Shown here piece by piece: positions 49,750-63,201 of a stretch of 64,000 bases of DNA. The stretch covers positions 113,922 to 177,921 of the forward strand of contig JAEEQE010000001.1 in assembly GCA_016285145.1 (NCBI GenBank). The letters are read 5' to 3'. This DNA is from Bacteroidales bacterium (GTDB taxonomy: Bacteria > Bacteroidota > Bacteroidia > Bacteroidales > WCHB1-69). The position numbers were made by a program, and so were the translations under genes. Under the pieces are notes generated by a model that searched no databases, was not told the origin of the DNA, and worked only from the letters and a program-made list of their open reading frames with translations. The number at the start of each line of letters is the position of its first letter. Position 1 is the stretch's first letter.

Positions 49750-51066
49750 ATGACTGCAAACGACTCCTCATCCTCCGGCGAAATCACCTCCTCCTTCGAG
49801 AAAATCTCGGATGTGTTCACCTCCTATTCGGAAATCCCATCCGAGGGGTTCAACCGACTATACAAAGCACAACGATATGGTAAATGGTTTATAATCAAAG
49901 GGTTGAAGCCCGAATACCAGCACAGGGAAGTCTATGTCAGCCTGCTGACCAAAGAATTCGAGTTGGGCCTGAAAATGGAACACCCCAACATTGCACATAT
50001 TTTCAGCAAGGAAACCGACCCCGTGGCCGGACCGTGCATCGTGATGGAATATGTGGATGGCGTCACACTCAAGGCTTTTCTGAAGCAGAACCCTCCCCGG
50101 AACGTGCGGATGAAAATCGCAAAGGAACTGCTGTCCGCCATGTCGTACTATCATAGTATGCAGATTGTACACCGCGATCTCAAACCCGACAACATCCTTG
50201 TCACCCGCAACGGCCATAATGTGAAAATCATCGACTTCGGGTTGGCGGACACCGATTATCACGGCATTTTCAAGCAGCCGGCGGGGTCAAACAAGTATGC
50301 TGCGCCGGAGCAGGTGGCGGGCAACGTACCGTTGGATTGCCGCGCCGACCTGTACGCTTTCGGGGTCATCCTCCGGCTGATATTCCCGCACGCTTACAGG
50401 CACATTGCCCGCAAGTGTACGCAGGAGAACCGTGAAAAACGTTACAGCAATGGGGAGGAAATCCTGCAACGGCTGCAACGACATGAGCACACCGCCCCCA
50501 TTATCATAGCCATCGCCTTTGTGATTGTATTAGCCATCTGCGCATGGTTCTTGTTCCGTCCCAACAACGACGGCGACAAAGAGAACCCAAACATTGAAAA
50601 ACAAGAGGCCTCCGTTTCGGAAATCATGAATGATGATATAGCCGGTCCTGAAACTGCTCCTGCAAATCCTGTTTCTCAGGCAGAACCAAACCATACAGAA
50701 ACTGCGATAAACGAAAACACCGCCGTCACAAGTGCCTATAATCAACTCCCGCAAGCGGTCAAAAGGAGCATTGAACAGTCGGTGGATGCTGTTTTCCAGC
50801 CGTTCTGGGATTGGGAAAAGGCAGCGACAGCCCGCGGAGTGTCATCCAAAGACAAATTGGCGGAGTATTTCCAATCCGACTTTTTCAAAAACAACTATAG
50901 GATTCGGGAGCGGCACCGGGAAGCTGTGGTGAGTGACATACTTCGCCGATATCCCCAGTGCGAACCCATCAGGGATTCGGTGACGACATTTTACAACTCC
51001 ACATTTGTAAACCGGATGATTGCGGTGAACAACTTAGTGGTCGGATGGCAGAAGGCTGCGCGTTAA
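49750..51066 (+). CDS. Membrane-bound Ser/Thr protein kinase
   Basis: A 438-residue eukaryotic-like kinase. The kinase domain (about 35-245) has the ATP lysine in FIIKGLKPE, MEYVDGVTL, the catalytic loop HRDLKPDNILV (about 141), DFGLAD and APEQ. The glycine-rich loop is poor (SEGFNRLYKAQRYGKW). A single membrane helix (about 255-275) separates it from a C-terminal extracytoplasmic domain of about 165 residues with an acidic, proline-containing linker and a helical end. No PASTA repeats are seen, so the outside domain senses something else. It is convergent with the double-FISUMP gene; their stop codons share a TTAA. Confidence 0.88.
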   Translation: MTANDSSSSGEITSSFEKISDVFTSYSEIPSEGFNRLYKAQRYGKWFIIKGLKPEYQHREVYVSLLTKEFELGLKMEHPNIAHIFSKETDPVAGPCIVMEYVDGVTLKAFLKQNPPRNVRMKIAKELLSAMSYYHSMQIVHRDLKPDNILVTRNGHNVKIIDFGLADTDYHGIFKQPAGSNKYAAPEQVAGNVPLDCRADLYAFGVILRLIFPHAYRHIARKCTQENREKRYSNGEEILQRLQRHEHTAPIIIAIAFVIVLAICAWFLFRPNNDGDKENPNIEKQEASVSEIMNDDIAGPETAPANPVSQAEPNHTETAINENTAVTSAYNQLPQAVKRSIEQSVDAVFQPFWDWEKAATARGVSSKDKLAEYFQSDFFKNNYRIRERHREAVVSDILRRYPQCEPIRDSVTTFYNSTFVNRMIAVNNLVVGWQKAAR

Positions 51067-54050
51067 TCGCGGAGACAGCGGACAGAGCCGCCATAGGAAG
51101 AAGGAGGATATTCCCACAAGCTAACAGTGGCGTGCGTATCGCGCAAATAAAACGCACATTGGTTAGATGACCATATGTACGCTTGGCCATACGGGATAGA
51201 TCCGAAGTAATATCCAGCTGGAAGAGCAGAAAATCCAGTAGCGTTGTTTGTGCTCACGTTATAGGCTACGGCACAGGTGTTGGTTACAGATTCGTGGCAC
51301 CAGATGTGCGATGCCAGCGCTTTGGCAATTTTGGTGCTGTCGCTACCACACAGATACTGGCTTTGGCTGCCCACGTAATCCTGCAATTGCGTCCATTCTG
51401 CTTGGCTTGGCACATGCCAACCTGTGGGGCAGATGCCTTGCACGCCGCTCGGGTTTGCGTTGCTGGCGGAGTCGCCATGCATCACTGCCACCCAGTTGTA
51501 GAGGTAGCCGTATGTGGGCACTGAGCTTTCGCCACCATACGATGCATAGCGATAGGCCACTGTTTCGGAGGTTGTGGTGCCTGCAGGGATTTCATTGCCA
51601 TCCGTGTAGTGTGTAGTACGCAGGTTCTCCCTCATCCAACACTGATTGCCAATCTGCACGGTATGGTAGATGTTACCATCATAATCAGTCACGGTGTCAG
51701 CACCGGGACAGGTCTGGGCATCAATCAGAATGTTGTCATTGATCGGGTGAGTGGTAGTGAAGACCCGCTGTTCCCCATAGGCCGTGCCCGCGCTGTTGGT
51801 GGCATAGGCCCTGATATAGTAAGTGGTGCCGGGAGCCAGGCCTGCAATGCCGCTTGTATAGCCACCTGTGCCATCACCGTCAAAGGTGTGGCCGTTGTTC
51901 ACAGTGGGGTTAGGCGTAGTGCTCCAGCAGACACCGCGCGAAGTCACGGGAGTGCCACCGCTTCCCGAGACAAAACCACCGGTCCTGGCTGACATAGAGG
52001 TGATGTCTTCAATTTTGACAGTGGTCACCAAAGGTGTGGCCGCAATAGAACTGTCCACACCCGAATCATCGAGCAGACAGCGGACAGATGTGGCATAGCA
52101 AACATTATATGGGCGTATATTTACCCCGTCATATCTTATTTCAAGTGTGGCCGCACCATGAGTTCCATTATAACCGAAGTGCTCCGTACTAGAACGTATG
52201 CAACAAGACTGTTTGTAGTCAACAAAACCAAACTCGCAATAACCTGAGCCAGCATGTCCTATAGGTATAGCCGAGAACCCAGTAGCGTTGTTGAGCGAAA
52301 TGTCGAAATCAGCATAGCAAACGTTATTTGTACTAACGCACCGCCATCCCATGGCTGATGACAACGCCTTGACAATATTGCTGTTGTCTCCTCCACAACC
52401 ATATTGGCTCTGGCTGCTCACAAAGTTTATCAACTGCATTAATTCAGCTTCGCTTGGCACGTGCCAGCCATCGGGGCAAATGCCCTGCACCCCGCTCGGA
52501 TTGGCACTGCTACTGGCCGCACCGTGCATCACCGCAGCCCAATTGTAAAGATATCCGTAAATGGGCACATTAGCACTGTTGTCGTTCGGGGCATAACGAT
52601 AGGCAACATTTTCGGAAAGAACACTGCCAACAGGGATAGCGGTCCCGTCTTCGTAGTGAGTGGTGCGCAAATTCTCCTTCGTCCAGCACTGGTAGCCGAT
52701 CTCCACAGTGGGATATACGTTGCCGTCGTAATCGGCCACAGAGTCGATGCCGCAATAGAAAGGCGGCTGAGTGGTGAAGATCAACTGCTCCCCGTAGGTG
52801 GTGCCTACGCTGTTGGTGGCATATGCCCGCACATAATAAGTTGTGTCAGCTATTAACCCAGTAATTAGGCTTGTGAAGGAGCCGTCGCCATTGCCGTTTG
52901 TAGTATAGTTGTCGCTAAGGGTGGGATTAGGCGAGGTGCTATAGCAGACACCCCGTGCCGTCACATACGCGCCGCCATTGTAGGTTACATTGCCCTCACA
53001 AGTGGCCCTCGAAGCCTTGACATCGGTTACTTGGAGTGTGTGTACTTCAGGCAATTCTGCCTGTGTGTAGAAGAACCGGATGTCACCGTATTGGACGCCT
53101 AACGCTGTTTGGGCGTAAGCACGATAGTAGTAGCGGGTAGCCACCTGCAGGTTAGAAACCGTGACATGGAAACTCCCCACTCCTGCACCATTCGTGTAAG
53201 TAACTGTTCCTGTCAGTTCTGCATTGTCGGCAAACACGAAGCCCCGCTCCAGGACCGGATACCCTGCCACTCCCGTGACCGAGCCGTTCAGTTGGGCTTC
53301 CGATGTCGTGATATTGGTCGCAGCATCCGTGGTCACTGTCGGCAACGGCAATGTGAAAATCAGCGGGATCAGCTCTGAATTGTATTGCTCCTTCAATACG
53401 TGGGCACTCTCGTATTCTGTCCCCGCCAAGTGGACAAAACCTTTATACAACATGACGTCGCCAAACGAAAACGGCTGGTTAGTGCCCCCTTTGTCGGCTT
53501 TTCCCGCATCAGGCACACTTACCTTTCCGAGATATTCTATCAAACTCAGTCCTGCATGGCCTGTGTTGACCATTTTAATCTGGACCATGCCATCTGCGGT
53601 ATGAGCCTGGAGCAGGTAGGTTTGCGGAGCATCCAGCCGCGCTCTGAACTGGTGGTTTCCCGGATCCAGCGAGCCCGTATAGGTTGCCGAGATCCTGCCA
53701 CTCAAGTCATAAATCTCCAGCAACACTTTCGAGGAATTGGGCAGAAAAAGGGAAAATTCCGTCACACCGTCAAAAGGGTTCGGAACATTCTGGGCAAGCC
53801 GGATGCCTTCCCCTCCCCCATGGATTTCTTCAACCCCCGTAACCCCCATAATGAAGTTTGTGTCGGGATAATAGAGCACCTCCTGCCAGTGTTTGGAGAT
53901 ATTCTCCACCAGCACACGATCCAGCTTTACATACCCGCCGTTTTGGTCTTGGCCGGTAAATTGGAGAATGACATTATCCTGCGCATGCAAGAAACCAACA
54001 CTGGCCAATATTGTTGCCCAAAGAATCACTATATATCCTGATTTACTCAT
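51063..54050 (-). CDS. Double-FISUMP surface protein with N-terminal sorting-like module
   Basis: A 995-residue exported protein (signal peptide 1-24). It opens with the short domain shared with 31260-33293 (FTGQDQNGGYVKLDRV, then YYPDT). A type IX type-A sorting-like module follows (IRLAQNVPNPF, LLEIYDLSGRI, TYLLQAHTADG, VQIKMVN). Then come two fibronectin-III-like domains, a FISUMP domain (VEIGYQCWTKENLRTTHY through VRCLLDD), a third fibronectin-III-like domain and a second FISUMP (VQIGNQCWMRENLRTTHY through SVRCLRD). The last two units look like a duplication of the preceding pair. The start at 54050 gives a normal signal peptide. Probably cell-surface; ligand unknown. Confidence 0.85.
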   Translation of the reverse strand: MSKSGYIVILWATILASVGFLHAQDNVILQFTGQDQNGGYVKLDRVLVENISKHWQEVLYYPDTNFIMGVTGVEEIHGGGEGIRLAQNVPNPFDGVTEFSLFLPNSSKVLLEIYDLSGRISATYTGSLDPGNHQFRARLDAPQTYLLQAHTADGMVQIKMVNTGHAGLSLIEYLGKVSVPDAGKADKGGTNQPFSFGDVMLYKGFVHLAGTEYESAHVLKEQYNSELIPLIFTLPLPTVTTDAATNITTSEAQLNGSVTGVAGYPVLERGFVFADNAELTGTVTYTNGAGVGSFHVTVSNLQVATRYYYRAYAQTALGVQYGDIRFFYTQAELPEVHTLQVTDVKASRATCEGNVTYNGGAYVTARGVCYSTSPNPTLSDNYTTNGNGDGSFTSLITGLIADTTYYVRAYATNSVGTTYGEQLIFTTQPPFYCGIDSVADYDGNVYPTVEIGYQCWTKENLRTTHYEDGTAIPVGSVLSENVAYRYAPNDNSANVPIYGYLYNWAAVMHGAASSSANPSGVQGICPDGWHVPSEAELMQLINFVSSQSQYGCGGDNSNIVKALSSAMGWRCVSTNNVCYADFDISLNNATGFSAIPIGHAGSGYCEFGFVDYKQSCCIRSSTEHFGYNGTHGAATLEIRYDGVNIRPYNVCYATSVRCLLDDSGVDSSIAATPLVTTVKIEDITSMSARTGGFVSGSGGTPVTSRGVCWSTTPNPTVNNGHTFDGDGTGGYTSGIAGLAPGTTYYIRAYATNSAGTAYGEQRVFTTTHPINDNILIDAQTCPGADTVTDYDGNIYHTVQIGNQCWMRENLRTTHYTDGNEIPAGTTTSETVAYRYASYGGESSVPTYGYLYNWVAVMHGDSASNANPSGVQGICPTGWHVPSQAEWTQLQDYVGSQSQYLCGSDSTKIAKALASHIWCHESVTNTCAVAYNVSTNNATGFSALPAGYYFGSIPYGQAYIWSSNQCAFYLRDTHATVSLWEYPPSSYGGSVRCLRD

Positions 54051-54090
54051 TATCTCTGAAAATTTGATTTTTATTAAATAATATAAAAAA

Positions 54091-54120
54091 TAATTCTCAA
54101 TTTTCAATTCTCAATTATTA
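54091..54120. repeat. Short repeat (TTCTCAATT)n
   Basis: TTCTCAATTTTCAATTCTCAATTA, about three imperfect units between two minus-strand genes, overlapping the stop of the SUMF1 lipoprotein gene. Confidence 0.55.
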
Positions 54121-55022
54121 ACTAAACTCACCCTAAATCCAACCGAAATACTGACAGCATTTCCGTCATAGGAATCCCGACAAGTCACTCGGCAATAATC
54201 CGGAAGATAGGTCCACGATCCGCCCCGCAACACGTAGGGATTTCCGGACACAACGCACGGATCCTGGCTGGAATCCGCAGAATATGGGCCGTAGGAGTCT
54301 GCACACCATTCCCACAGGCTTCCGCTCATATCACACAGTCCCAGCTCGTTCGGCATCTTTTCGCCCACGGAATGCAATGTTCCACCGGCGTTGCCATTGT
54401 GCCACGCCACATTATCCACATCATCACTGCCGCTAAAACGGTAATATTGGGTATAGGAAGCGCCCCGTGCGGCGTATTCCCACTGGGCCTCCGTGGGCAG
54501 CCGGAAGGAGAGGCCTGTCATAGCGCTCAGCCGCTCTGCAAAGGTGATGGCTGCTTCCCAAGAAACGTTGTAGGCCGGCATATCGTCTCCCCTGCCATAC
54601 AGATCAGACCATCCCAAGTTGTGGCCCATAATCACGGCCCACTCCCGCTGGGTGATCTCGAACTTGCCAATGTAATAGTCGTTCAGTAGCACCTCGTGCA
54701 CGGGACATTCATTGTTTTGGGCATCTGAGTCATAATTATTGCCTTGGGCATCCGTGCTTTGCGCCCCCATCAGAAAGGTGCCGCCGTCCACCCGCACCAT
54801 ATTGGCCACCAAATCCCGAATTTCATTTTTTTGTTCCTCGCTAATTTCCATGTCATCCGCCCAGTGGATGATGATACCGTTGATATTGTCAACACGGGTG
54901 AAGTCGTCATTCTCGTATATATAGTCCCCTTGCACAAAGGTTGGGTCTTTGCCGCAGGAAACCACGAAAAGCATGATTCCCGAGACAACAAACAGCAATT
55001 TAATGTACCAATATCCTTTCAT
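54111..55022 (-). CDS. SUMF1-domain lipoprotein
   Basis: A 303-residue predicted lipoprotein (lipobox FVVSC, cysteine 23) with a formylglycine-generating-enzyme-like domain (about 80-303). The fold landmarks are VDGGTFLMGAQ, YYIGKFEITQREWAVIMG, YNVSWEAAITFAERLS, FRLPTEAQWEYAARG, DMSGSLWEWC, LRGGSWTY and a terminal VGFRVS. The CRVTC near the end differs in spacing from the catalytic cysteine pair of true FGE, so it is probably a ligand-binding or structural relative. GldJ/GldK of the gliding machinery share the fold but are longer. Its start overlaps the end of the upstream gene by 23 bases. Confidence 0.85.
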   Translation of the reverse strand: MKGYWYIKLLFVVSGIMLFVVSCGKDPTFVQGDYIYENDDFTRVDNINGIIIHWADDMEISEEQKNEIRDLVANMVRVDGGTFLMGAQSTDAQGNNYDSDAQNNECPVHEVLLNDYYIGKFEITQREWAVIMGHNLGWSDLYGRGDDMPAYNVSWEAAITFAERLSAMTGLSFRLPTEAQWEYAARGASYTQYYRFSGSDDVDNVAWHNGNAGGTLHSVGEKMPNELGLCDMSGSLWEWCADSYGPYSADSSQDPCVVSGNPYVLRGGSWTYLPDYCRVTCRDSYDGNAVSISVGFRVSLVNN

Positions 55023-56181
55023 CTTTAATTTTCAATTTTACATCATGATGATATGGGATGCAGAATCCAACGCCCATCCGCACGCCCAAAGCGTAATGCA
55101 TTTCATTGAGGGTGTTCAGGTTGTAGGCCATGCTTGTGACCTCGGCGGAAAGCACCATGTTCTTGACATGGAACATCAGCCCAGCGGCGGCCGTGGGACC
55201 GTAATAGGTTCTTTTAGGATAACTATGCCAGCCCTGGTCGCTTTCAAATTTGAGAGCACGGTAGCCGAAACCTGCCCCGATGTGGATGGAAAGCAGTCGG
55301 CACGGACGGACAACCAGCCCCAACTGAGCGCCCAAGTAGGATGTTTTAGAAGCCCCAGTAAGGACGTAGTGTCCGTTTGGTTGAAAAGGATCAAACGCGC
55401 CCTTGTAGTGGAAATTGGTCATAAAGCTGAAATACCAGCCGACAACCCGCATGGTGCCGACCTTGAAGCCGACCGACCACTGCGGCATGGATGTATAGGC
55501 GGCATTGAGGGTGCAGAACACAGATGGCAGCAATGCCTTGCGCCTATTCTGCCGTGTCTGCTGGCGTTCAGCCCTCAGCTGTTGGGCCAGGGACTTTTGG
55601 AGGGACAAACTCTCCCTTTCCTCTTTCCGTGTGCTGTCGGCGGCGACTCCTGCTTGATCAGCCTTTTCGATGACCTCGGCTGTCCGCACTTCGCGGGGGT
55701 CGTCCATCACCAGCCGGAAACCTGCGGAGGCATCCCCGCCGTCACTGCAGAGCGCATGTCCGTCGTCATGGTGAAAACCGGTGCGAACAGCACACGTCCA
55801 CTCCATCGTTGTGGGAAGGCGGAATTGCAAACCGCTTTTCTGGTTGAACCAAAGAATGAAAAGCTCCACTTCGTCACGGGAAACATTGCTCACGGGCAGG
55901 CTGTCGCTGGACACACCGCCCGACCGGGTGCCCATGATCTCGTTCCAAAGTTGCCATGTGACCGGCTGCTTGGAGATGTAGAAATTTTTGAGAGTGGTTT
56001 GTTCGGAGTCTGTCATGCACAGGCCGGAGGGCATAAAAAACATCTCCATGGGAGCATTGCCAACAAGTGTGTGCGCAGAAGCATCGTTTTGGGCGAAGAC
56101 AAGACCAGGGAAAGCGGCCATCAGAATCACGATGATTAATCTGATGCACGCAGTGGGAGCCCGTAAGAGTGTGTTGGTCAT
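55000..56181 (-). CDS. Half SUMF1 domain fused to outer-membrane beta-barrel
   Basis: A 393-residue exported protein. The signal peptide (1-31) is followed by a shortened SUMF1-like part (about 45-160: FMPSGLCM, FYISKQPVTWQLWNEIMG, VSNVSRDEVELFILWF, FRLPTTMEWTCAVRTG) that ends with ASAGFRLV. A highly charged coiled-coil-like linker (RKEERESLSLQKSL) leads to a C-terminal barrel region (about 225-393) with alternating strands. I know of no named family with this order. It overlaps the SUMF1 lipoprotein gene (same strand, different frame) and probably drives its expression from the TATCTTTG at 56202-56209. Confidence 0.72.
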   Translation of the reverse strand: MTNTLLRAPTACIRLIIVILMAAFPGLVFAQNDASAHTLVGNAPMEMFFMPSGLCMTDSEQTTLKNFYISKQPVTWQLWNEIMGTRSGGVSSDSLPVSNVSRDEVELFILWFNQKSGLQFRLPTTMEWTCAVRTGFHHDDGHALCSDGGDASAGFRLVMDDPREVRTAEVIEKADQAGVAADSTRKEERESLSLQKSLAQQLRAERQQTRQNRRKALLPSVFCTLNAAYTSMPQWSVGFKVGTMRVVGWYFSFMTNFHYKGAFDPFQPNGHYVLTGASKTSYLGAQLGLVVRPCRLLSIHIGAGFGYRALKFESDQGWHSYPKRTYYGPTAAAGLMFHVKNMVLSAEVTSMAYNLNTLNEMHYALGVRMGVGFCIPYHHDVKLKIKDERILVH

Positions 56182-56201
56182 TGCAATTGGTTTTCTGGTT
56201 G

Positions 56202-56209
56202 CAAAGATA
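56202..56209 (-). promoter_or_regulatory. -7 element TATCTTTG of SUMF1/barrel operon
   Basis: Reverse strand TATCTTTG followed by GCAACC, 20 bases before the start at 56181. Confidence 0.55.
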
Positions 56210-56226
56210 CAACAAATTTCATGCCG

Positions 56227-56799
56227 CTACTCTCGCTCCCGCCGCACCTCAGTCAGACCACCCTTATTGCCCACCACGAAGAGGGTCGGTGGGTTGGTGC
56301 CGCGCACGAAGTTGTCGAGATAGAGTGGTTCCCCGATGATGAAGATGGAACAACGGAAGGTGTCGCCAGGCTTGAGCTTTGAGTTCTCGCTCTGCAAGAC
56401 CTCGAAACCGCCGTTGCCGAGATGTTCAATCCGAACGCGGCGGTCGGGCGCCCACGAGATGGTCAGACAGTCGCCTACAGCCAAATTGGCGGGATTGACG
56501 GTGTAGCCAACAATCATGTTCGAAGACTCGCCCAAGCGGTCACTGTTTTCACAAAAGTCGTCCCAGTCGCGGAAACCCACGCAACGGGCGAGAATGGAAA
56601 GTGTGGAGTAGCGCGTGGTGTCGTAGCCGTCCACATAGCCCCACAATCGTTTGAGGGTGCTCACACCAAGGGTTTCCTTGCAGCGTTCCTGGATCACGCC
56701 GGTGAGAAACTGGAAGTCGGCGGGGGTTTTCATCTTGCGAGAGACGGACTCCTCTACCATTTCACGGAGTTTAAGTATATCGTTTTCGTTTGAGGACAT
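56227..56799 (-). CDS. Hypothetical protein with helical N-terminal domain
   Basis: A 190-residue cytoplasmic protein. Residues 1-90 are helical (LKLREMVEESVSRKM, FQFLTGVIQERCKETLGVS, TLKRLWGYVDGYDTTRYSTL, WDDFCEN), a pattern I associate with many unnamed Bacteroidota proteins with a DNA-binding flavour. Residues 95-190 are beta-rich (IVGYTVNPANLAVGDCLTISW, RVRIEHLGNGGFEV) and recall a small beta-sandwich. No catalytic motif is seen. It has its own element TATATTTG (reverse, 56817-56824). It sits between the SUMF1 pair and the EcsC-TerB operon, so it might regulate either; that is a guess. Confidence 0.65.
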   Translation of the reverse strand: MSSNENDILKLREMVEESVSRKMKTPADFQFLTGVIQERCKETLGVSTLKRLWGYVDGYDTTRYSTLSILARCVGFRDWDDFCENSDRLGESSNMIVGYTVNPANLAVGDCLTISWAPDRRVRIEHLGNGGFEVLQSENSKLKPGDTFRCSIFIIGEPLYLDNFVRGTNPPTLFVVGNKGGLTEVRRERE

Positions 56800-56874: not shown

Positions 56875-58017
56875 TTATTCAACAAGCATCATCATCGCAT
56901 CATCCGTATAGCCTAATTCACGACCTAATGTCTGAATGTACAGCTTTTCAGCAGGATGGAGTGTGCCGTCCGCCTTCGCCAATTGCGCCAGACCGGACAA
57001 GAGGGTCGTGGCGTTCATCAAATCATCTTTGAAGATGTTCAGATCCACTTTTTGTTGCTTCGGATTGTCAATCTCCGCAAACAGGAGGTTTCGGCTTTTG
57101 TCCGAAATGTTCATGCCGCCTACCAACACTTTAAGCAGATTCTCCTCATCTTGCGAAAAATTGCCATCCACAAGAGCCATATTGAGAATCAGTTTGGCCT
57201 TTGCGATTTCGATCTGTTCTTGTTTCTCGAAGTCAATGATCTCGTTCAGAAAAAGGGCTTTTGCCGCTTTGGCGATCGCGTAGGTTGACATAGCGTCAAC
57301 GGTTCCGCCTACGACACCTCCCAATACGGGAATGGCTTTGTGGATATTGACAAGCCCTTTTTGTCCGAATTTGGTGAACAGACGAAAGCCTACCGCCTGA
57401 TTGATCTTGGTCAGCACGGCACCCGGCAATTTTTTCAAGGATGCGGTGGTGAATTTGACAGCGAATTGCCCAGCAGTTTTTGATAGCACATTGCCTGCCT
57501 GGGATCCGAGAAGGCACAGATACATCCCGGTCTTTTTCTCCTCGGTGTTATCATGGTATCCGCCTAATTCGGCAATCGCTCCGATCATACGAAGTTGGAT
57601 GCCCATGACACCGGCGACATTTGCAGGCAAGGTGACGGCCATAGTGGGCAACCCTCCGAAACTGGTGACAAAACCCGTCGTGGCGGAAGAGGTGATTTGC
57701 CAATTGACGAGGTGGTTGATGGCGGTATTCACATTGCCATACTTGTCGAGGTATCTTTTTGCCATATCGCTGCTGGAACCCAACCCGGGAATGTTGCCGT
57801 TGGCTTTGTCAAACGCCCAGTCCAGCACTTCCAACATCTTCGAACCCTTTTCTTCTATTTCCTCTTCAGAGACATTCTCTTCCTCCGTTTTGTTCCGGTG
57901 TAAGAGTTCTTGTCCTTTTTCCTTCCCAGATTGTGCCAAATCTGACATCTTGGCTGTGATTTTTGCCACACCTTCTTTGAGGTTCACGTTCTCTTTAACT
58001 TTATTTAAGATGTCCAT
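56875..58017 (-). CDS. EcsC-TerB fusion protein
   Basis: A 380-residue protein and the last gene of a seven-gene minus-strand operon. After a charged N-terminus (1-60) an EcsC-type domain follows (about 65-260): ITSSATTGFVTSFGGLPTMAVTLPANVAGVMGIQLRMI contains weakly hydrophobic, glycine-rich helices, with LLGSQAGNVLSK and a VLGGVVGGTVDAMS hairpin. The C-terminal 110 residues match a TerB-like helical bundle with two related halves (LILNMALVDGNFSQDEENLL and LAQLAKADGTLHPAEKLY), the acidic pattern that binds metal in TerB. EcsC proteins accompany membrane-stress and membrane-targeting systems; TerB occurs in stress and defence loci. The exact job is unknown. Confidence 0.75.
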   Translation of the reverse strand: MDILNKVKENVNLKEGVAKITAKMSDLAQSGKEKGQELLHRNKTEEENVSEEEIEEKGSKMLEVLDWAFDKANGNIPGLGSSSDMAKRYLDKYGNVNTAINHLVNWQITSSATTGFVTSFGGLPTMAVTLPANVAGVMGIQLRMIGAIAELGGYHDNTEEKKTGMYLCLLGSQAGNVLSKTAGQFAVKFTTASLKKLPGAVLTKINQAVGFRLFTKFGQKGLVNIHKAIPVLGGVVGGTVDAMSTYAIAKAAKALFLNEIIDFEKQEQIEIAKAKLILNMALVDGNFSQDEENLLKVLVGGMNISDKSRNLLFAEIDNPKQQKVDLNIFKDDLMNATTLLSGLAQLAKADGTLHPAEKLYIQTLGRELGYTDDAMMMLVE

Positions 58018-58056
58018 AATTTCAAGAGTCTATTACAAATAAAAGTATGTCAGGTG

Positions 58057-58482
58057 CTATGTTTTAACTTTTTTGCATTTTTCAACTAAGGAAATGACCT
58101 CATCAAGCACGCTGTTTTCTCCTAAGATCTTTCCGAAAAAACTGATTTCAGACATCATTTTGTCATTTCGTTCCTCTTCAGTCAAAAATACTTCATCAAA
58201 ATCTTGATTGAATTGGTCGGTCTCGAAATAGTCGTCGTATTTCTGTCTTCTGAATAATGAACCTTTGCAAGCTCGTTTTTTTGCTGCGACCAAGGATTCC
58301 CAAAGCAGCCTGAATTCTTCAGGATCCATTCCTAATCCAACGGCTTTTTGTGTGAGAAATCCCACGTCTTTTGGGAGAATCTCACTTTTTTGGAGAACAG
58401 CACGTGCCAAAGAGCGGAGAGACTCGTACTTTGGAGTGTGGCGAGCTTCTACGTGGGTGTTTGTGTCTTTCAAATAATTCAT
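58057..58482 (-). CDS. Hypothetical protein
   Basis: A 141-residue soluble, mostly helical protein. LRSLARAVLQKSEILPKDVGFLTQKA and GLGMDPEEFRLLWESL in the first half are followed by an acidic middle (YFETDQFNQDFDEVFLTEEERND) and a C-terminal helix. No family or catalytic motif is recognised. It is the sixth gene of the operon, 18 bases behind the small membrane protein and 39 bases before the EcsC-TerB gene, so its product is probably a cytoplasmic partner of that system. Confidence 0.6.
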   Translation of the reverse strand: MNYLKDTNTHVEARHTPKYESLRSLARAVLQKSEILPKDVGFLTQKAVGLGMDPEEFRLLWESLVAAKKRACKGSLFRRQKYDDYFETDQFNQDFDEVFLTEEERNDKMMSEISFFGKILGENSVLDEVISLVEKCKKVKT

Positions 58483-58500
58483 ATTGTGTAATGTTGAGCT

Positions 58501-58794
58501 CTACAAGAATTCAATAATGCAAGCCACTGCGGCGGGAATGCAGAAGAATTGGAAGGCGTAGCTCAGTGCGGTGAAGATGCGGCTGTCAAGAAGGTCCACG
58601 CTGCTTTTCACCCAGAACCAGCGTGGCGGCACTGTCTCGCCCCATCCAGTGAAACCGATGATCAGGCCAAGCAAAGCCGAGCCGGCACCAGCATAAAGCA
58701 CCCAATCCTCAATGTCGCCCATGGCGAAATAGCCCACGGCTGCTATAAGGATTATGGGGTTCAGAATGTTCAGAATCCAAAGTAGAACTTTCAT
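58501..58794 (-). CDS. Small membrane protein
   Basis: A 97-residue protein with about three hydrophobic segments (residues 2-24, 33-50 and 72-95) separated by short charged loops (GDIEDW, GWGETVPPRW). It lacks a cleavable signal peptide and probably sits in the inner membrane. No family is recognised. A perfect 11-base hairpin (58814-58840) lies just upstream in the gap to the preceding gene. In an operon with a tail-anchored protein and an EcsC protein it could form the membrane part of a complex (inference). Confidence 0.6.
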   Translation of the reverse strand: MKVLLWILNILNPIILIAAVGYFAMGDIEDWVLYAGAGSALLGLIIGFTGWGETVPPRWFWVKSSVDLLDSRIFTALSYAFQFFCIPAAVACIIEFL

Positions 58795-58813
58795 CTCGCT
58801 GTTTTTTTAAGAA

Positions 58814-58840
58814 CAAGGTGGGGCGGTAGGCCCCACCTTG
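58814..58840 (-). promoter_or_regulatory. Perfect 11-bp hairpin inside operon
   Basis: CAAGGTGGGGC (58814-58824) and GCCCCACCTTG (58830-58840) with a five-base loop. On the minus strand no T-run follows, so it is not a standard terminator; processing site, mRNA stabiliser or attenuator are possible. Confidence 0.7.
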
Positions 58841-58848
58841 CTTGAAAA

Positions 58849-59085
58849 TTACTTTCCTTCGGCAAAATCCAACAATTTTTTCCCGAGTTGTTGGACTGTC
58901 CAATCCGGATCGAATTTGAATCCGGCCTGGGTAGCCAACTCTCTCAAAGCAGCTTTTACGGAGCCGCATTTTTCAACCATCTCCTTGCTCACTTCGATGG
59001 AGTTGTCTTCATTTTGCCAAACCATGTGACCGGCAATCTTTTTGCCTCTTTTTTTGTCACCTTTCGTGATTTTTCCTGTTGCCAT
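58849..59085 (-). CDS. Small basic hypothetical protein
   Basis: A 78-residue soluble protein. The N-terminus is strongly basic (TGKITKGDKKRGKKIAG). The rest is a compact helical domain (VSKEMVEKCGSVKAALRELATQAGF, then DPDWTVQQLGKKLLDFAEGK). The basic tail suggests binding of nucleic acid or acidic lipid, but no family is recognised. Fourth gene of the operon, 81 bases behind the tail-anchored protein gene and followed by the hairpin. Coding status rests on good codon structure, operon position and a plausible ATG. Confidence 0.55.
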   Translation of the reverse strand: MATGKITKGDKKRGKKIAGHMVWQNEDNSIEVSKEMVEKCGSVKAALRELATQAGFKFDPDWTVQQLGKKLLDFAEGK

Positions 59086-59166
59086 AAAAAACGTTTTTTA
59101 ATGCATTAGTGCCTACTCTTTTCCGGATTTTCGGCGGCCTCCTTTAATCTGATTGTATTCAATGTT

Positions 59167-59649
59167 TTAACGCATTGCGAAATATGCGACGACACCCAAA
59201 ATGATGATGGCGAGAATCAGCCAGAGAAGCCAGTTACATTTCTTCTTTTCCGAAAGAACCTCCAAACGGTAGTTGCCACGCTTGCCAGCCCCTTTTTCCG
59301 TTTCACTGACTTCAAAATCAATATCATATCGCTGTGCCAATTGCGTGATTTTCTGGAATTTGTCGGCGGGCCACATCGGATTGGTAAAGGCCACTTTTGT
59401 CCCGTCTTTCAGGGTCAGGAACATGTCCATATCCCCAACTTGCTTGGCGAGTTTTTCTTCAAAATCGCCCGACTTCTTCTTGCCCGAAATGTTGTCAACC
59501 GAATCAATTTCGTTGCCGATTTCATTTTTCGGGAAAGCCTTCTGCAAATCGGCAAGTGTGGCGTTCGGGTGCATTTCAAGATAGGCCGCCACAATTCCCA
59601 AGGCCGTCCATTTCTGTGACAGGCCATAAACTTTGATCTGTTTTGCCAT
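59167..59649 (-). CDS. Tail-anchored protein with N-terminal helical domain
   Basis: A 160-residue protein from the ATG at 59649; the longer frame runs into the upstream gene. The N-terminal part (LGIVAAYLEMHPNATLADLQKAFP) looks like a winged-helix-type module, followed by MFLTLKDGTKVAFTNPMWPADKFQKI and a helix ending RYDIDFEV. After a basic linker (GKRGNYRLEVLSEKKKC) it closes with one hydrophobic helix (NWLLWLILAIIILGVVAYFA). The topology predicts an inner-membrane tail anchor with the domain in the cytoplasm. Third gene of the operon. I recognise similar N-terminal modules in other Bacteroidota proteins but cannot name them. Confidence 0.65.
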   Translation of the reverse strand: MAKQIKVYGLSQKWTALGIVAAYLEMHPNATLADLQKAFPKNEIGNEIDSVDNISGKKKSGDFEEKLAKQVGDMDMFLTLKDGTKVAFTNPMWPADKFQKITQLAQRYDIDFEVSETEKGAGKRGNYRLEVLSEKKKCNWLLWLILAIIILGVVAYFAMR

Positions 59650-59668
59650 TGTAATTTCTTTTAGTTTG

Positions 59669-59926
59669 TTATCTTTTTTTCTTCTCACGCAGTTTTGCAA
59701 GGTCTTCTTTCAGCTGGGCTAAAATCTCCTTGTTTCTTTTCATCGTGTATTCAAGCCCTTCGAATGTCCGGATTTTTTTGCCAACGGCCTTGTTGTATGC
59801 TTTTGCGTCGGCAATGCTTCTTTTCGCGGAATCGATTTTTGCTTTCAAATCCTCAATCTGCTTTTTTTTAGAAGCAATTTGCTTGTCGATGTCATCTTTT
59901 GATGAACGGAAAAATAAAAATCCCAT
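59669..59926 (-). CDS. Small coiled-coil protein
   Basis: An 85-residue protein that is almost one coiled coil: IDKQIASKKKQIEDLKAKI, DSAKRSIADAKAYNKAV and NKEILAQLKEDLAKLREK show heptad spacing. The short N-terminus MGFLFFRSS is hydrophobic. No catalytic residues are evident. It sits between the GIY-YIG-like gene (30 bases) and the tail-anchored gene (19 bases). Probably an oligomerisation or scaffold subunit (inference). Confidence 0.6.
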   Translation of the reverse strand: MGFLFFRSSKDDIDKQIASKKKQIEDLKAKIDSAKRSIADAKAYNKAVGKKIRTFEGLEYTMKRNKEILAQLKEDLAKLREKKKR

Positions 59927-59956
59927 AGTCGTTTCTTTTTATTTGAAGGTGTCCCT

Positions 59957-60487
59957 TTACTTTTTCAAATCAGCTCTCAACTGTTTCAGCTCTGCAATCC
60001 ATTCGGGAGGCACCGTGTTGTTCTTGCTGATGTTGAGCGGATAGGCGAACTTATGTTGGGCGAGTTCCTCTGTTTCCCGGCATTCTGCCCGATCCACGGT
60101 CTCGGTGTATTCCCATTCCCAGAAACAGCTGTCGATCAGCTTGTTGACGATTGTCTCGGCTGTGTTGTCATCCGCACCCGGGGCAATAATAGCACGCAGC
60201 GTCCTCCGTAGAGTGGAACTCTTGAACGGACCGCGGATATGCCAGCGGATACGCCGGCTCATATCGCTGCTGATGCCGAAATAGAGGGCCATATACTGCT
60301 TCCCGTTAATCTTCCGTTCTTGCAGTTCTATGTCTTTTAACAATATGCTATTCTTGAAATGCGCCAGTAGATCATCGGCATCGGCTTTAAAAAACCACCA
60401 ACGATACACGCCAGGGCGTTTTTCCACTTTGAGACACCGGTTTTGTATTTCCTGTCTTAATTCAGCTGCTGATTGGATGTATTGCAT
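59957..60487 (-). CDS. GIY-YIG-like nuclease domain protein
   Basis: A 176-residue protein. GVYRWWF (26-32) and YFGISSDMSRRIRWH (69-83) correspond to the GIY and YIG strands and the conserved arginine (Arg79). A glutamate in EELAQHKFAYPLN and its asparagine match the metal-binding Glu and the late Asn of the family. The two strands are about 40 residues apart instead of the usual ten, because of an inserted segment (KADADDLLAHFKN and following). It would cut DNA if active. It is the first gene of the seven-gene operon and follows the TATTTTTG element and a tandem decamer. Medium confidence on the fold, lower on activity. Confidence 0.62.
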   Translation of the reverse strand: MQYIQSAAELRQEIQNRCLKVEKRPGVYRWWFFKADADDLLAHFKNSILLKDIELQERKINGKQYMALYFGISSDMSRRIRWHIRGPFKSSTLRRTLRAIIAPGADDNTAETIVNKLIDSCFWEWEYTETVDRAECRETEELAQHKFAYPLNISKNNTVPPEWIAELKQLRADLKK

Positions 60488-60516: not shown

Positions 60517-60570
60517 ACACCGCAAAAATAAAGACTTGACCAATAGGGTGTTTGGTCCTTTTTGGTCCTA
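60517..60570 (-). promoter_or_regulatory. Promoter and tandem decamer before GIY-YIG operon
   Basis: Reverse strand TATTTTTG (60517-60524) is the -7 element, 30 bases before the start. Upstream lie two adjacent copies of a decamer, plus strand TTTGGTCCTT and TTTGGTCCTA (60551-60570), a possible operator or activator site. Confidence 0.5.
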
Positions 60571-60681
60571 ATCAAAAACTGAATTAAGCGTGACAGATCA
60601 CGACAAACTTTTTGAAGCTTGTAAGGCGGGTGTTTTTGCCATCGCAGTTGGTTTATTGGCGGCAAAGTATGGATAGGGATA

Positions 60682-61764
60682 TCACTTTTGTTTCTTGAAC
60701 CGATCAATTGCCACCTTCAGCGAGATGACGTGCGAATACTGGGCGATGGAGAGGTTGCCCAGGTCGGTGAAGGCGTAGTCGATGGAGACGATGTTCTTGA
60801 TGCATACCCCCACCCCGAGGTTGATCTGCAGGGTGGTTTTCTTCTTGCCGTCGAAGTCGGGCTCCTGCTGGAAGTTGCCGAGGCCGGCGCGCAAGGCCAC
60901 GATTTTCTTGTACCCGAACTCCATGCCGAAATGCGGGTCCATGCTCAGCACCTTGCTTCGTATCAGCGTGTTGCGCTTGCCGTCGAACGTGCAGTCCAGG
61001 CCCAGCGCGAACGTGGCGTTGAAGCCCTTCCCAAAATCCACATATTTGGCGCCGCCCAACAGCAAGGCGGGCAAAGTGAGCTCCAGCCCATTTTCGGGTA
61101 TCTCGTTGCCGGTCTGATGGAATACGTCAATCACGGCGTCCGAGAGCTGGTACGACCAGGCGTTGAAGGTGGAGGTGCCGTCGCGCAGCATGGCGCCGGC
61201 CTGCCAGCCTTTGCGTTCGTACTGCAAGCCGAAATCCAACCCGAAGCCCCACGCGCGGGCGAACTTGCCGATGCCCCGCTGGATGATCTTCGCGTTGGCA
61301 CCCACAGACAAGCCGGGCACCTTCCCGAAGGCGTAGGCGTAACTGAGCAAAACGGCATTGTCGGCGGCCGAGAAATAGGTGATGCGATCGTAATCCACAT
61401 TACCCTGTGCATCAATAAGTTCGGTGGTGTTCATAATGTTATCCACCCCGAAGCGGATATAGGAAAGCGCCACGGAGGAATGGTCGTCGATGCGTGCCGC
61501 AATGCCGCCGTAGTCGTACTTGGCGATGCCGGCGAAGTATTCGGCGTGCATCAGCGAAAGCTGATAGCGCTTGTCCATACGGCTCAGGCCGGCGGGATTC
61601 CAGTAGGCGGCGGTCACGTCGTCGGCGGTGGCGCACATCGTGTTGGCCATGGCCAGCCCCCGCGCCCCGATGCCCAGGGAGAGGAACTCGTTGCTGTATT
61701 TCGACTGGGCGCCAGCCGTCCATACAAGGAACATCAAAAGCGGTATCAGCAGCCGTTGTCTCAT
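60682..61764 (-). CDS. PorV/PorQ-family outer-membrane protein
   Basis: A 360-residue exported barrel (signal peptide 1-19, ending TAGAQ). The opening FLSLGIGARGLAMANTMCATADDVTAAYWNPAGL is the hallmark of the FadL-related PorV/PorQ/UPF0164 family, and the remaining strands alternate as expected, ending VISLKVAIDRF. PorV and PorQ shuttle or attach type IX secreted proteins, but the family also contains other members, so the exact role is open. It starts one base after the methyltransferase gene stop, so the two form an operon. It supports the presence of type IX secretion. Confidence 0.85.
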   Translation of the reverse strand: MRQRLLIPLLMFLVWTAGAQSKYSNEFLSLGIGARGLAMANTMCATADDVTAAYWNPAGLSRMDKRYQLSLMHAEYFAGIAKYDYGGIAARIDDHSSVALSYIRFGVDNIMNTTELIDAQGNVDYDRITYFSAADNAVLLSYAYAFGKVPGLSVGANAKIIQRGIGKFARAWGFGLDFGLQYERKGWQAGAMLRDGTSTFNAWSYQLSDAVIDVFHQTGNEIPENGLELTLPALLLGGAKYVDFGKGFNATFALGLDCTFDGKRNTLIRSKVLSMDPHFGMEFGYKKIVALRAGLGNFQQEPDFDGKKKTTLQINLGVGVCIKNIVSIDYAFTDLGNLSIAQYSHVISLKVAIDRFKKQK

Positions 61765-61765
61765 G

Positions 61766-62932
61766 TTACGATTGTTGCTTATTTATAATATGGTGTTTCC
61801 GGTCGCCTTCAAAAAGCTCGTAACCCAGGAATCGACATTCCAACTGGCCGTTGTAGAGGGTGGCTTTCGTGCTGGGCTTCAGCCCTACCCTCTTGAGCGC
61901 TTGCAGGTCCGAACTGATGACAAACGCACGACAGCCGGAAAAATTGTATTTAAGAGTTCTGCCGATGTCGCTATAGAAGGCCTCGGTGTCTTCCAACGCC
62001 AGCCGCTCGCCGTAGGGCGGGTTCATCATCACCAGGGCTGGCACTCGTCGGGGCTTGAAACGGAATGCGTCGCATTTCTCCACCGTGATAAAGTCTTCCA
62101 GGCGGGCCCGGCGGATGTTCTCGCGGGCAATGTCGAGGAAACGGGGGTTGATATCGGAGGCGTAGAAGTTGATGTCCACATCCTCGGCAATCCTTGCCTC
62201 CTTCCGGATTCGGTTCCAGGATTCCTGGTCGAAGTTTTTCCAGTGCAGGAAGCCGTATTCGCGGCGGTAGAAGCCCGCGGGGATGTTGAGGGCACACATG
62301 GCCGCCTCAATGGGCAGCGTGGCTCCGCCGCACATAGGGTCGATGAAGTCGCAGTCGCCATGCCATCCGCTCATCGCGATCATGGCCGCCGCCACCACTT
62401 CGTTGATGGGGGCCGGGTGGTTGCGCACCTTGTAGCCGCGTTTGTGTAGCGATTCGCCTGAGCTGTCCACGAAAAGCTGCGCCTCGTCCCGATATATATG
62501 CAAATGGAACTGAACGTCCGGATTCTCTCGATCCACGTCTGGTCGTTCATCGTACAAGTCGCGGAAGCGGTCGCAAATAGCATCTTTGGCCAGCACAGAC
62601 GCGAACAGAGGCGTTTTGAAGATGGTGTCGGCGCAGGTGGTGTGTACGGCCATCGTGCCGTCACGGCGCAGGAATTTCTCGGCGGGGAAGTCGAAGATTT
62701 GTTCGTAATACTGCCGTTTGTTTTGGAAAGTGAAAGTTTTTTGTCGCCAAAGGATGCGCAATGCGCAACGGCAGAAATAGTTGGCGCGGTACATCAGATC
62801 CATGTCGCCCTCGAAGGCCACGGCACGGCTCATGATGCGGCAGTTGCGGGCTCCTAAGCGCACCAGCTCGTCGGCCAACGCCGGCTCGATACCTGCAAAT
62901 GTCTTTGCTACAAAATATTGTGTCTCCTCCAT
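61766..62932 (-). CDS. THUMP-type class I RNA methyltransferase (RlmL N-terminal-like)
   Basis: A 388-residue methyltransferase. The N-terminal ferredoxin-like/THUMP region (YFVAKTFAGIEPALADEL, FLHIY-type strands, HKRGYKVRNHPAPINEVVAAAM) is followed by a SAM-binding fold with DPMCGGATLPIEAA and the NPPY catalytic motif (MMNPPYGERL) for N2-guanine methylation. It resembles the N-terminal half of E. coli RlmL and Bacillus YpsC, so 23S rRNA guanine is the likely target. The ATG at 62932 is chosen because the longer frame crosses the promoter TATCTTTG (62951-62958, reverse). It leads the operon with the PorV-like gene. Confidence 0.9.
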   Translation of the reverse strand: MEETQYFVAKTFAGIEPALADELVRLGARNCRIMSRAVAFEGDMDLMYRANYFCRCALRILWRQKTFTFQNKRQYYEQIFDFPAEKFLRRDGTMAVHTTCADTIFKTPLFASVLAKDAICDRFRDLYDERPDVDRENPDVQFHLHIYRDEAQLFVDSSGESLHKRGYKVRNHPAPINEVVAAAMIAMSGWHGDCDFIDPMCGGATLPIEAAMCALNIPAGFYRREYGFLHWKNFDQESWNRIRKEARIAEDVDINFYASDINPRFLDIARENIRRARLEDFITVEKCDAFRFKPRRVPALVMMNPPYGERLALEDTEAFYSDIGRTLKYNFSGCRAFVISSDLQALKRVGLKPSTKATLYNGQLECRFLGYELFEGDRKHHIINKQQS

Positions 62933-62950
62933 ACGATTCTTTTGAGACGG

Positions 62951-62958
62951 CAAAGATA
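62951..62958 (-). promoter_or_regulatory. -7 element of methyltransferase gene
   Basis: Reverse strand TATCTTTG followed by GCCGTC, 18 bases before the start. It lies directly after the T-tract of the tRNA terminator. Confidence 0.6.
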
Positions 62959-62959
62959 C

Positions 62960-62995
62960 AAAAAAAACAAGCACCTGCATAAAGCAAGTGCTTGT
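62960..62995 (-). terminator. Terminator of tRNA-Ala
   Basis: ACAAGCAC (62967-62974) pairs with GTGCTTGT (62988-62995); on the minus strand the stem is followed by a run of T. Confidence 0.8.
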
Positions 62996-62997
62996 TT

Positions 62998-63074
62998 TGG
63001 TGGAGCATACGGGAGTCGGACCCGTGACCTCCTGACTGCCAGTCAGACACTCTAGCCAACTGAGCTAATGCCCC
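62998..63074 (-). tRNA. tRNA-Ala (anticodon GGC)
   Basis: A 77-base cloverleaf on the minus strand. The acceptor GGGGCAT pairs with ATGCTCC and includes the G3-U70 wobble that identifies alanine tRNA. The D loop contains AGCTCAGTTGGCTAGAG. The anticodon stem TCTGA/TCAGG encloses CTGGCAG with anticodon GGC. The T arm contains GGGTCCGACTCCC (usual TTC changed to TCC). The 3' CCA is encoded. It has an upstream TATTTTTG element and a terminator immediately after it. Confidence 0.93.
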
Positions 63075-63090
63075 GTTTGTTTTGAGGCTG

Positions 63091-63098
63091 CAAAAATA
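63091..63098 (-). promoter_or_regulatory. -7 element of tRNA-Ala
   Basis: Reverse strand TATTTTTG, 16 bases before the tRNA 5' end. Confidence 0.5.
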
Positions 63099-63201
63099 CA
63101 AAAATTTTCATATACTCCGTCACACAAAAATATTTTTTTTTTAAACATGAATGTTGGTCTTTTTCTGGTTTCGTGACATATAATAACAAAACAAATTTTT
63201 A

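What the first reader, a model, noticed from the sequence alone, without database searches (positions are those of the whole stretch)
56875..60487. Compact seven-gene operon: GIY-YIG-like protein, coiled coil, tail anchor, small proteins and EcsC-TerB fusion
Seven minus-strand genes with gaps of 18 to 81 bases behind one promoter: a GIY-YIG-like domain protein, an 85-residue coiled coil, a tail-anchored protein, a basic 78-residue protein, a three-helix membrane protein, a 141-residue protein and an EcsC-TerB fusion. A predicted nuclease fold with membrane anchors and a TerB/EcsC module recalls stress or anti-phage modules, but I know no described system with this set. Seen: order, spacing and topology. 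Known: TerB occurs in stress/defence loci and GIY-YIG proteins cut DNA. Inferred: the genes act together at the membrane.
Basis: partly seen in the sequence, partly recalled or inferred. Interest (0 to 1): 0.72.

Follow-up and report, generated by a model that had tools for sequence, protein, structure and literature searches.

The report
Swappable nuclease-TerB gene module, rumen bacteria
Seven small genes in a gut-type bacterium form a swappable module, built around a predicted DNA-cutting enzyme, membrane proteins and a stress-type protein, that comes and goes at one chromosomal spot and may be an undescribed defence or stress system.

Summary
The seven genes are there as described. They are a real, selected unit: relatives (ruminant-gut Bacteroidales) keep a core of GIY-YIG nuclease, membrane-anchored protein (TA), 78-residue protein (B78) and three-helix protein (TM3). 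The coiled coil, the 141-residue protein and the EcsC-TerB fusion come and go. In a close relative with 92% identical flanks the same site holds other cargo; in another only a decayed relic of the operon remains. The core belongs to a larger family of mix-and-match arrays (TerB, OmpA, ion channels, in part nucleases). The TA domain is homologous to a domain fused to nuclease-like proteins. B78 is under extreme constraint (median dN/dS 0.017). Best reading: a membrane-tethered nuclease module against foreign DNA, with a TerB/EcsC membrane component. The genetics are well supported; the function is inferred. No phage test exists, the defence-neighbourhood test was inconclusive, and stress response is a live rival. 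EcsC alone matches a phage-defence candidate model (PDC-S29). I found no description of this set in the papers searched.

The parts
60517..60572 (-). resident promoter segment with TAnnTTTG -7 box at 60523-60530
   Evidence: 56 bases 100% identical at the same site in G035 in front of other cargo; an overlapping 111 bases 92% identical in G016 in front of the relic; box found; the consensus itself is recalled
59957..60487 (-). GIY: GIY-YIG nuclease-like protein, 176 aa
   Evidence: PF20815 3.4e-15; G26-V27-Y28, Y69-F70-G71, R78/R79, H83, E138, N152 invariant in 11 sequences
59669..59926 (-). CC: basic coiled coil, 85 aa; accessory, present in 6 of 11 core loci
   Evidence: only coiled-coil-type matches below cut-off; map
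59167..59649 (-). TA: about 130-aa nuclease-associated domain plus C-terminal membrane helix
   Evidence: hhalign 97.7% probability, E 2.1e-12 to the C-terminal domain of PD-(D/E)XK-like and wHTH-like proteins; AlphaFold2 helix 140-159; longer relatives add an OmpA domain, 3.8e-19
59110..59144 (-). DUF805b cis-regulatory RNA (RF02914) in the TA-B78 gap
   Evidence: 41.9 bits, gathering 35.6, E 1.3e-9; again
58849..59085 (-). B78: basic 78-aa protein, predicted EEE-HHH fold
   Evidence: median dN/dS 0.017 over 45 pairs; model pLDDT 78, no PDB match with E<=0.001
58814..58840 (-). terminator- or attenuator-like hairpin between B78 and TM3
   Evidence: 6 consensus pairs in 9 sequences (7 distinct), 3 pairs with compensatory changes
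58501..58794 (-). TM3: three-helix membrane protein, 97 aa
   Evidence: topology by eye; 12-sequence alignment with invariant VPPRW and K63; no family above cut-off
58057..58482 (-). A141: helical protein with a weak TerB-like segment; accessory, in 3 of 11 core loci
   Evidence: no family above cut-off; own profile hits proteins that look TerB-like by eye at 1e-5 to 1.2e-4
56875..58017 (-). ECS: EcsC (53-256) fused to TerB (271-374); accessory, in 4 of 11 core loci
   Evidence: PADLOC PDC-S29 1.4e-71
56227..56799 (-). HTH190: neighbouring gene with its own -7 box, marker of the hotspot
   Evidence: 22 of 72 listed DUF805b elements within 10 kb of an HTH190 gene, 0.87 expected under uniform placement

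Best explanation
SHOWN: the operon is an exchangeable cargo at a fixed chromosomal site with a resident promoter, and one version of a modular array system spread patchily in Bacteroidales. Its core is a GIY-YIG nuclease-like protein, a membrane-anchored nuclease-associated domain (TA), a highly constrained small basic protein (B78, preceded by a DUF805b RNA) and a small membrane protein (TM3); TerB and EcsC parts are optional. INFERRED: it is a defence module against foreign DNA (phage or mobile element). TA holds a complex at the inner membrane. B78 is the adaptor or regulator that the core versions share. The GIY-YIG enzyme cuts DNA when the complex is triggered. The EcsC-TerB protein is a membrane-perturbing or membrane-sensing partner. 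The DUF805b leader adjusts B78 dose.
For: Recurrence: 13 of 13 GIY loci at 58% identity or more have TA, B78 or RVY within the fetched DNA; all 10 genomes with TA at 59% identity or more have GIY, B78 and TM3 beside it. Turnover: G035 carries other cargo between 92% identical flanks; G016 carries a relic running from the GIY start to the ECS end; mosaic dS against G016 is 0-0.09 for CC, TA, B78, TM3 and A141 but 0.49 for GIY and 0.54 for ECS. Sister arrays can carry other nuclease-like proteins: c15 (PDDEXK_4 0.002, below cut-off; nothing at 0.05 for the L152 copy), a 305-aa protein (GIY-YIG 0.012, below cut-off), DUF2779 in 2 of 119 array neighbours. TA is homologous to a domain of nuclease-like proteins found on plasmids. 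EcsC is PDC-S29 and cargo of plasmids. TerB is listed in Shango and Bunzi, GIY-YIG in PD-T4-3 and PD-lambda-1 (PMC10952713, table passages).
Against: No experiment. PADLOC matched none of the other proteins with a credible score (gene 2 has only coiled-coil-type matches of 0.005 or weaker). The enrichment test was inconclusive: 234 against 53 PADLOC families matched in 119 array-neighbour and 122 control proteins, many of the listed ones families I take to be generic ATPases and kinases, and proteins were not counted. No nuclease was recognised by the GIY or c15 profiles in sister arrays L048, L049 (same place as L163), L050, L051, L052, L054, L055 and L153. TA and B78 gave no PDB fold match. 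OmpA and ion-channel partners in relatives also suit envelope stress. G088 has decayed parts (truncated TA, extended B78, no DUF805b above gathering), and TA of L076 has no start in frame.
Confidence: 0.45

Rival explanations
1. An envelope or metal stress-response module of the Ter type: TerB/EcsC and the OmpA-linked relatives sense membrane or cell-wall damage, and the nuclease part serves DNA repair.
For: TerB and EcsC domains; OmpA domain in longer TA relatives; Ion_trans channels in sister arrays; several sister arrays without a recognised nuclease.
Against: Patchy presence, replacement at one site and a relic are unusual for repair or housekeeping; no TerC, TerD or TerZ among the seven; the core version always contains the GIY protein (11 of 11, but 10 of these were found through GIY).
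Confidence: 0.3
2. An interbacterial immunity array: small proteins each neutralise a secreted effector of competitors, gathered as cassettes.
For: Cassette-like variability, small proteins, mosaic dS.
Against: A nuclease with its catalytic positions kept and a core kept in order do not fit interchangeable immunity genes; B78 is almost invariant, not diversifying; no recombinase among the seven.
Confidence: 0.1
3. Unrelated cargo genes that share only a hotspot and a promoter.
For: The site and promoter accept other cargo; CC, A141 and ECS come and go.
Against: The same four genes in the same order in 10 of 11 loci, also in another genus and next to other neighbours; B78 found with RVY in 3 of 3 non-own genomes where RVY is in 12 of 295 (chance 5e-5 if independent).
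Confidence: 0.1

Closest known systems
Shango and Bunzi anti-phage systems (TerB-containing)
   Same: A TerB protein in a compact operon; Shango sits in a chromosomal defence hotspot (PMC10250203, passages).
   Different: Shango is TerB plus helicase plus ATPase; no helicase or ATPase is among the seven. No PADLOC match to either, but I did not check that PADLOC 2.0.0 holds models of both. Bunzi's partner was not compared.
PDC-S29 (PADLOC phage-defence candidate, single gene)
   Same: The EcsC part of gene 7 matches at 1.4e-71.
   Different: Candidate only; here EcsC is fused to TerB and sits in a seven-gene operon.
GIY-YIG defence proteins PD-T4-3 and PD-lambda-1
   Same: GIY-YIG domain in a phage-defence protein (PMC10952713, passages).
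   Different: Those are listed as PF01541; this is PF20815 with TA/B78/TM3 partners; no PADLOC match.
PD-(D/E)XK-like proteins with a TA-like C-terminal domain (L092:8810-9817 type)
   Same: Homologous accessory domain.
   Different: There it is fused to the nuclease-like part; here it is on a separate membrane-anchored protein.
DUF805b RNA (RF02914)
   Same: Full-length match above gathering.
   Different: I know no link of it to such operons; no held paper uses the terms DUF805b, DUF805 RNA or DUF805 motif.

Membership tests
GIY-YIG nuclease (PF20815) | profile match over the catalytic domain | tested here: met
   residues 26-172 to profile 1-152 of 153, 3.4e-15, 56.8 bits over cut-off 22.4
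GIY-YIG nuclease (PF20815) | catalytic GIY, YIG-like, Arg, Glu and Asn positions kept | tested here: met
   G26 V27 Y28, Y69, G71, R78/R79, H83, E138, N152 invariant in 11 sequences; the motif itself is recalled
GIY-YIG nuclease (PF20815) | DNA cleavage | not testable with these tools
   needs an assay
Shango | TerB, helicase and ATPase genes together | tested here: not met
   no helicase or ATPase among the seven
Bunzi | its TerB protein and partner | not tested
   no PADLOC match named Bunzi, but presence of its models in the library was not checked
Tellurite (ter) operon | TerB with TerC, TerD or TerZ | tested here: not met
   only TerB found among the seven
PDC-S29 | match to the model | tested here: met
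   1.4e-71, residues 53-259; applies to the EcsC domain only
PDC-S29 | proven anti-phage activity | not testable with these tools
   candidate model; the one paper found lists it in a table (PMC11514479, passages)
DUF805b RNA | score above the gathering threshold | tested here: met
   41.9 against 35.6 bits
Anti-phage defence system (general) | enrichment in defence neighbourhoods | tested here: inconclusive
   119 array-neighbour against 122 control proteins; only families, not proteins, could be counted
Anti-phage defence system (general) | variable occupation of a chromosomal hotspot | tested here: met
   G035 replacement, G016 relic
Anti-phage defence system (general) | protection against phage | not testable with these tools
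   needs an assay

The most novel reading that the evidence does not exclude
A previously undescribed class of anti-mobile-element system in Bacteroidales: membrane-tethered, mix-and-match arrays (TA/OmpA anchor, RVY, B78, TerB, coiled coils) with interchangeable effectors (GIY-YIG or PD-(D/E)XK nucleases, ion channels, EcsC), several of whose cassettes carry the same orphan leader RNA (DUF805b), usually 20 to 30 bases upstream of the start codon, so that one RNA-level signal sets the whole array. This would also give the first biological setting for DUF805b RNAs.
Probability: 0.3. Interest if true: 0.85.

Novelty: new variant of a known kind. Interest (0 to 1): 0.6.

Why it matters
If right, rumen Bacteroidales carry an undescribed, modular nuclease-plus-membrane system that database scans miss because most of its parts are under 180 residues and belong to no family. 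It makes two questions testable: what TerB and EcsC do beside nucleases, and what the orphan DUF805b RNA responds to.

Tried and rejected
Sequence and fold searches of TA and B78 against solved structures gave nothing significant; RVY, ECS and GIY likewise by sequence. Plasmid search with TA and phage search with GIY: no match; phage search with ECS: 3 records, EcsC part only. The phylum search with TA found three other genomes of 296: one strong (G388, TA beside a c12 gene), one domain fused to a nuclease-like part (G366), and one 22-bit hit inside a 982-aa ORF that looks like a TonB-type receptor (G448), which I treat as noise. Upstream alignment A9 showed no shared operator across loci. DUF805b as a mark peculiar to this operon was rejected: 78 of 100 relatives have a match, and only 17 of the 54 elements precede a gene that my array profiles recognise. 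Shango, ter operon and immunity array were considered and set aside (see tests). A first exact pattern for the RNA element matched none of 166 loci because my spacing was wrong; a looser one worked. In one search one row (L250) did not hold the domain; I dropped it and used 7 of 8 rows.
Full report
Names. GIY, CC, TA, B78, TM3, A141 and ECS are my labels for genes 1-7; HTH190 is the next gene; RVY, c9, c11, c12, c13, c15, c16, c59 and xre7 are protein groups from relatives' arrays, found by clustering and own profiles. c11 is a TerB protein (2.7e-5) and c15 PD-(D/E)XK-like (0.002, below Pfam's cut-off), although the L152 copy of c15 matched nothing at 0.05; c13 and c59 are Ion_trans channels; c9 is a basic coiled coil, c16 a lipoprotein and xre7 a small HTH protein, by eye.

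Observation. Seven ATG-started minus-strand genes with gaps of 18 to 81 bases are confirmed. The window lies in a 2.73-Mb, 71-contig genome. Relatives with record titles are Bacteroidales or Prevotellaceae assemblies; where the titles name a source it is mostly ruminant gut.

It recurs. Profile A1 of GIY found 19 loci in a collection of one genome for each of 84,980 species (the window's own genome may be left out there). At 58% identity or more there are 13 loci, L068-L080; all 13 have TA, B78 or RVY in the fetched DNA and 12 have B78 (L079 does not). Counting the window, 11 loci have GIY, TA, B78 and TM3; 10 are in that order and L075 is rearranged. L072 and L073 are near-identical and not independent. 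CC is in 6 of these 11, ECS in 4, A141 in 3. Of the six GIY loci at 36-46% identity, L084 is in an array; L083 and L085 pair with a DUF6884-like gene (read by eye; the paralogue in L161 is DUF6884 at 4.7e-35); L081 and L082 have another partner; L086 is cut by the contig end. From the other side, TA was sought in 197 relatives: 20 have it; the 10 at 59% identity or more (own included) all have GIY, B78 and TM3 beside TA; the weaker ones lie in related arrays except one 3.9-kb contig (L066). ECS-related sequence is in 12 of the 197, full length in 3 (own, G016, G020).

It is exchangeable. In G035 the DNA on both sides is 92% identical to the window (51289-56783 and 60686-63113), but the 3.9 kb of the operon are replaced by 5.9 kb with no tblastn match to any of the seven genes. 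Fifty-six bases of the promoter segment are kept there, identical, before another gene. In G016 the same site (PorV upstream, HTH190 downstream) holds the promoter, the first residues of GIY, a second GIY piece and the last part of ECS with a stop: a relic of the whole operon. G016 also has an intact-looking copy on another contig (L037). In G018 and G096 only the TerB end of ECS, with at most a scrap of EcsC, was seen, with other genes upstream. In another genus of the family the module lies between HTH190 and the FGE or kinase-like genes (L043, L044). Silent-site divergence between window and G016 is 0 to 0.09 for CC, TA, B78, TM3 and A141 but 0.49 for GIY and 0.54 for ECS, so parts have been exchanged separately.

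It is selected. Median dN/dS: B78 0.017 (45 pairs, median dS 1.24), TM3 0.098, TA 0.114, GIY 0.145, ECS 0.098 and A141 0.135 (3 pairs each), CC 0.32 (few informative pairs). B78 is remarkably constrained for an accessory gene (my judgement; no yardstick was run beyond HTH190, 0.125, in the same call).

The parts. GIY keeps the catalytic positions (motif recalled). TA: its profile matches, at 97.7% probability and E 2.1e-12, the C-terminal domain of proteins whose N-terminus looks like PD-(D/E)XK (NucS_C 0.0093 and HSDR_N 0.01, both below cut-off) and of proteins with wHTH-like N-termini by eye. The nuclease-like protein L092:8810-9817 has matches on 355 of 72,556 plasmid records, 238 over at least 80% of it; of four fetched, one (L250) lacks the domain. 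Longer TA relatives add an OmpA domain. The TA model is fairly confident (pLDDT 81) but has no solved match. B78 occurs in tandem and fused to a TerB-like segment (by eye; DUF533 at 0.0045, below cut-off); model EEE-HHH, no solved match. A141's profile weakly hits proteins that look TerB-like. ECS: the EcsC half is about 43% identical, in most of the 15 rows listed, to stand-alone EcsC genes on plasmids (208 records, 180 of them Klebsiella), in one case the only annotated gene of a 2.1-kb plasmid.

The wider system. In 295 genomes of the order, RVY was found in 12 (not the own one) and B78 in 4, own included. The three other B78 genomes all have RVY in the same neighbourhood (chance 5e-5 if independent). 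Neighbourhoods share a theme: TA-OmpA, c12, c11 TerB, RVY, c16, B78, c9 and an ion channel in varying subsets, some behind an xre7 gene. A nuclease-like gene (GIY or c15 profile) is in the arrays found through GIY and in L046, L047, L056, L152, L206 and L215; none was recognised by these profiles in L048-L052, L054, L055 and L153 (L163 is the same place as L049).

The RNA. Rfam DUF805b (RF02914) matches at 59110-59144, about 25 bases before the B78 start. Eight of the 10 loci L068-L077 have it above gathering; L071 is just under (34.9 bits, G028); L074 has none above gathering. Elsewhere it stands before TA, c9, RVY, c15 and TM3-type genes, the last 145 bases away. Of 54 elements, 17 precede a gene my array profiles recognise, and the loci were chosen for arrays. 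It is not peculiar to this system: 78 of 100 relatives have a match (57 above cut-off), 0 of 14 control genomes. Twenty-two of 72 listed elements in the genus lie within 10 kb of an HTH190 gene, at 13 places by my count, against 0.87 expected under uniform placement; elements at one place are not independent. That DUF805 RNAs were first reported as candidate cis-regulators of unknown ligand is recalled; no held paper mentions the terms.

Function. I favour a nuclease-based, membrane-tethered defence module at about 0.45. For: the gain, loss and replacement pattern; a nuclease with catalytic positions kept in every core locus; a nuclease-associated anchor domain; EcsC as PDC-S29; TerB and GIY-YIG each listed in known systems. 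Against: no experiment; PADLOC has nothing credible for the other proteins; neighbourhood enrichment inconclusive; I saw no known defence gene beside the window copy, but of the flanking genes only HTH190 was scanned with PADLOC; some sister arrays have no recognised nuclease; channels and OmpA fit stress equally well.

Novelty. Papers were searched with the terms (open-licence PMC only); none of the listings or passages I saw describes this gene set. Subscription papers, among them the 2012 Ter review (recalled; not held), could not be checked.

Noticed in passing
window 59110-59144: DUF805b RNA (Rfam RF02914), an orphan cis-regulatory RNA, about 25 bases upstream of B78; the same element precedes many other genes in these genomes.
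   Followed up: partly
window 56227-56799: HTH190 family genes lie unusually often near DUF805b elements (22 of 72 listed within 10 kb, 0.87 expected); they may mark or regulate a family of hotspots.
   Followed up: partly
L092:8810-9817: A PD-(D/E)XK-like protein with a TA-like C-terminal domain has matches on 355 plasmid records (238 over at least 80% of it), mostly Proteobacteria; 7 of the 12 rows listed are annotated hypothetical protein.
   Followed up: partly
L083, L085, L161: Distant relatives of the GIY protein sit beside a DUF6884 or DUF6884-like gene; in L161 the pair lies with two RVY genes and an exonuclease-like gene (by eye).
   Followed up: no
L206:6169-13045, L215:4192-13284: Other arrays in the same genus combine c15, a 500-residue nuclease-like protein (probably the DUF2779 hits) and a GIY-YIG-like protein (by eye) with RVY and B78-domain proteins.
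   Followed up: partly
L203:4837-9861, L204:5517-10539: TerB-like proteins followed by a 465-aa conserved protein (SPFH-like by eye) in arrays near DUF805b elements.
   Followed up: no
L074 (G088), L076 (G075): Partly decayed modules: in L074 TA lacks its membrane helix, B78 runs past its usual stop and no DUF805b is above threshold; in L076 TA has no start codon in frame.
   Followed up: no
window 51063-54107: Large repeat-bearing protein (Fib_succ_major-like by eye) with fragments of similar genes scattered around the hotspot in relatives.
   Followed up: no
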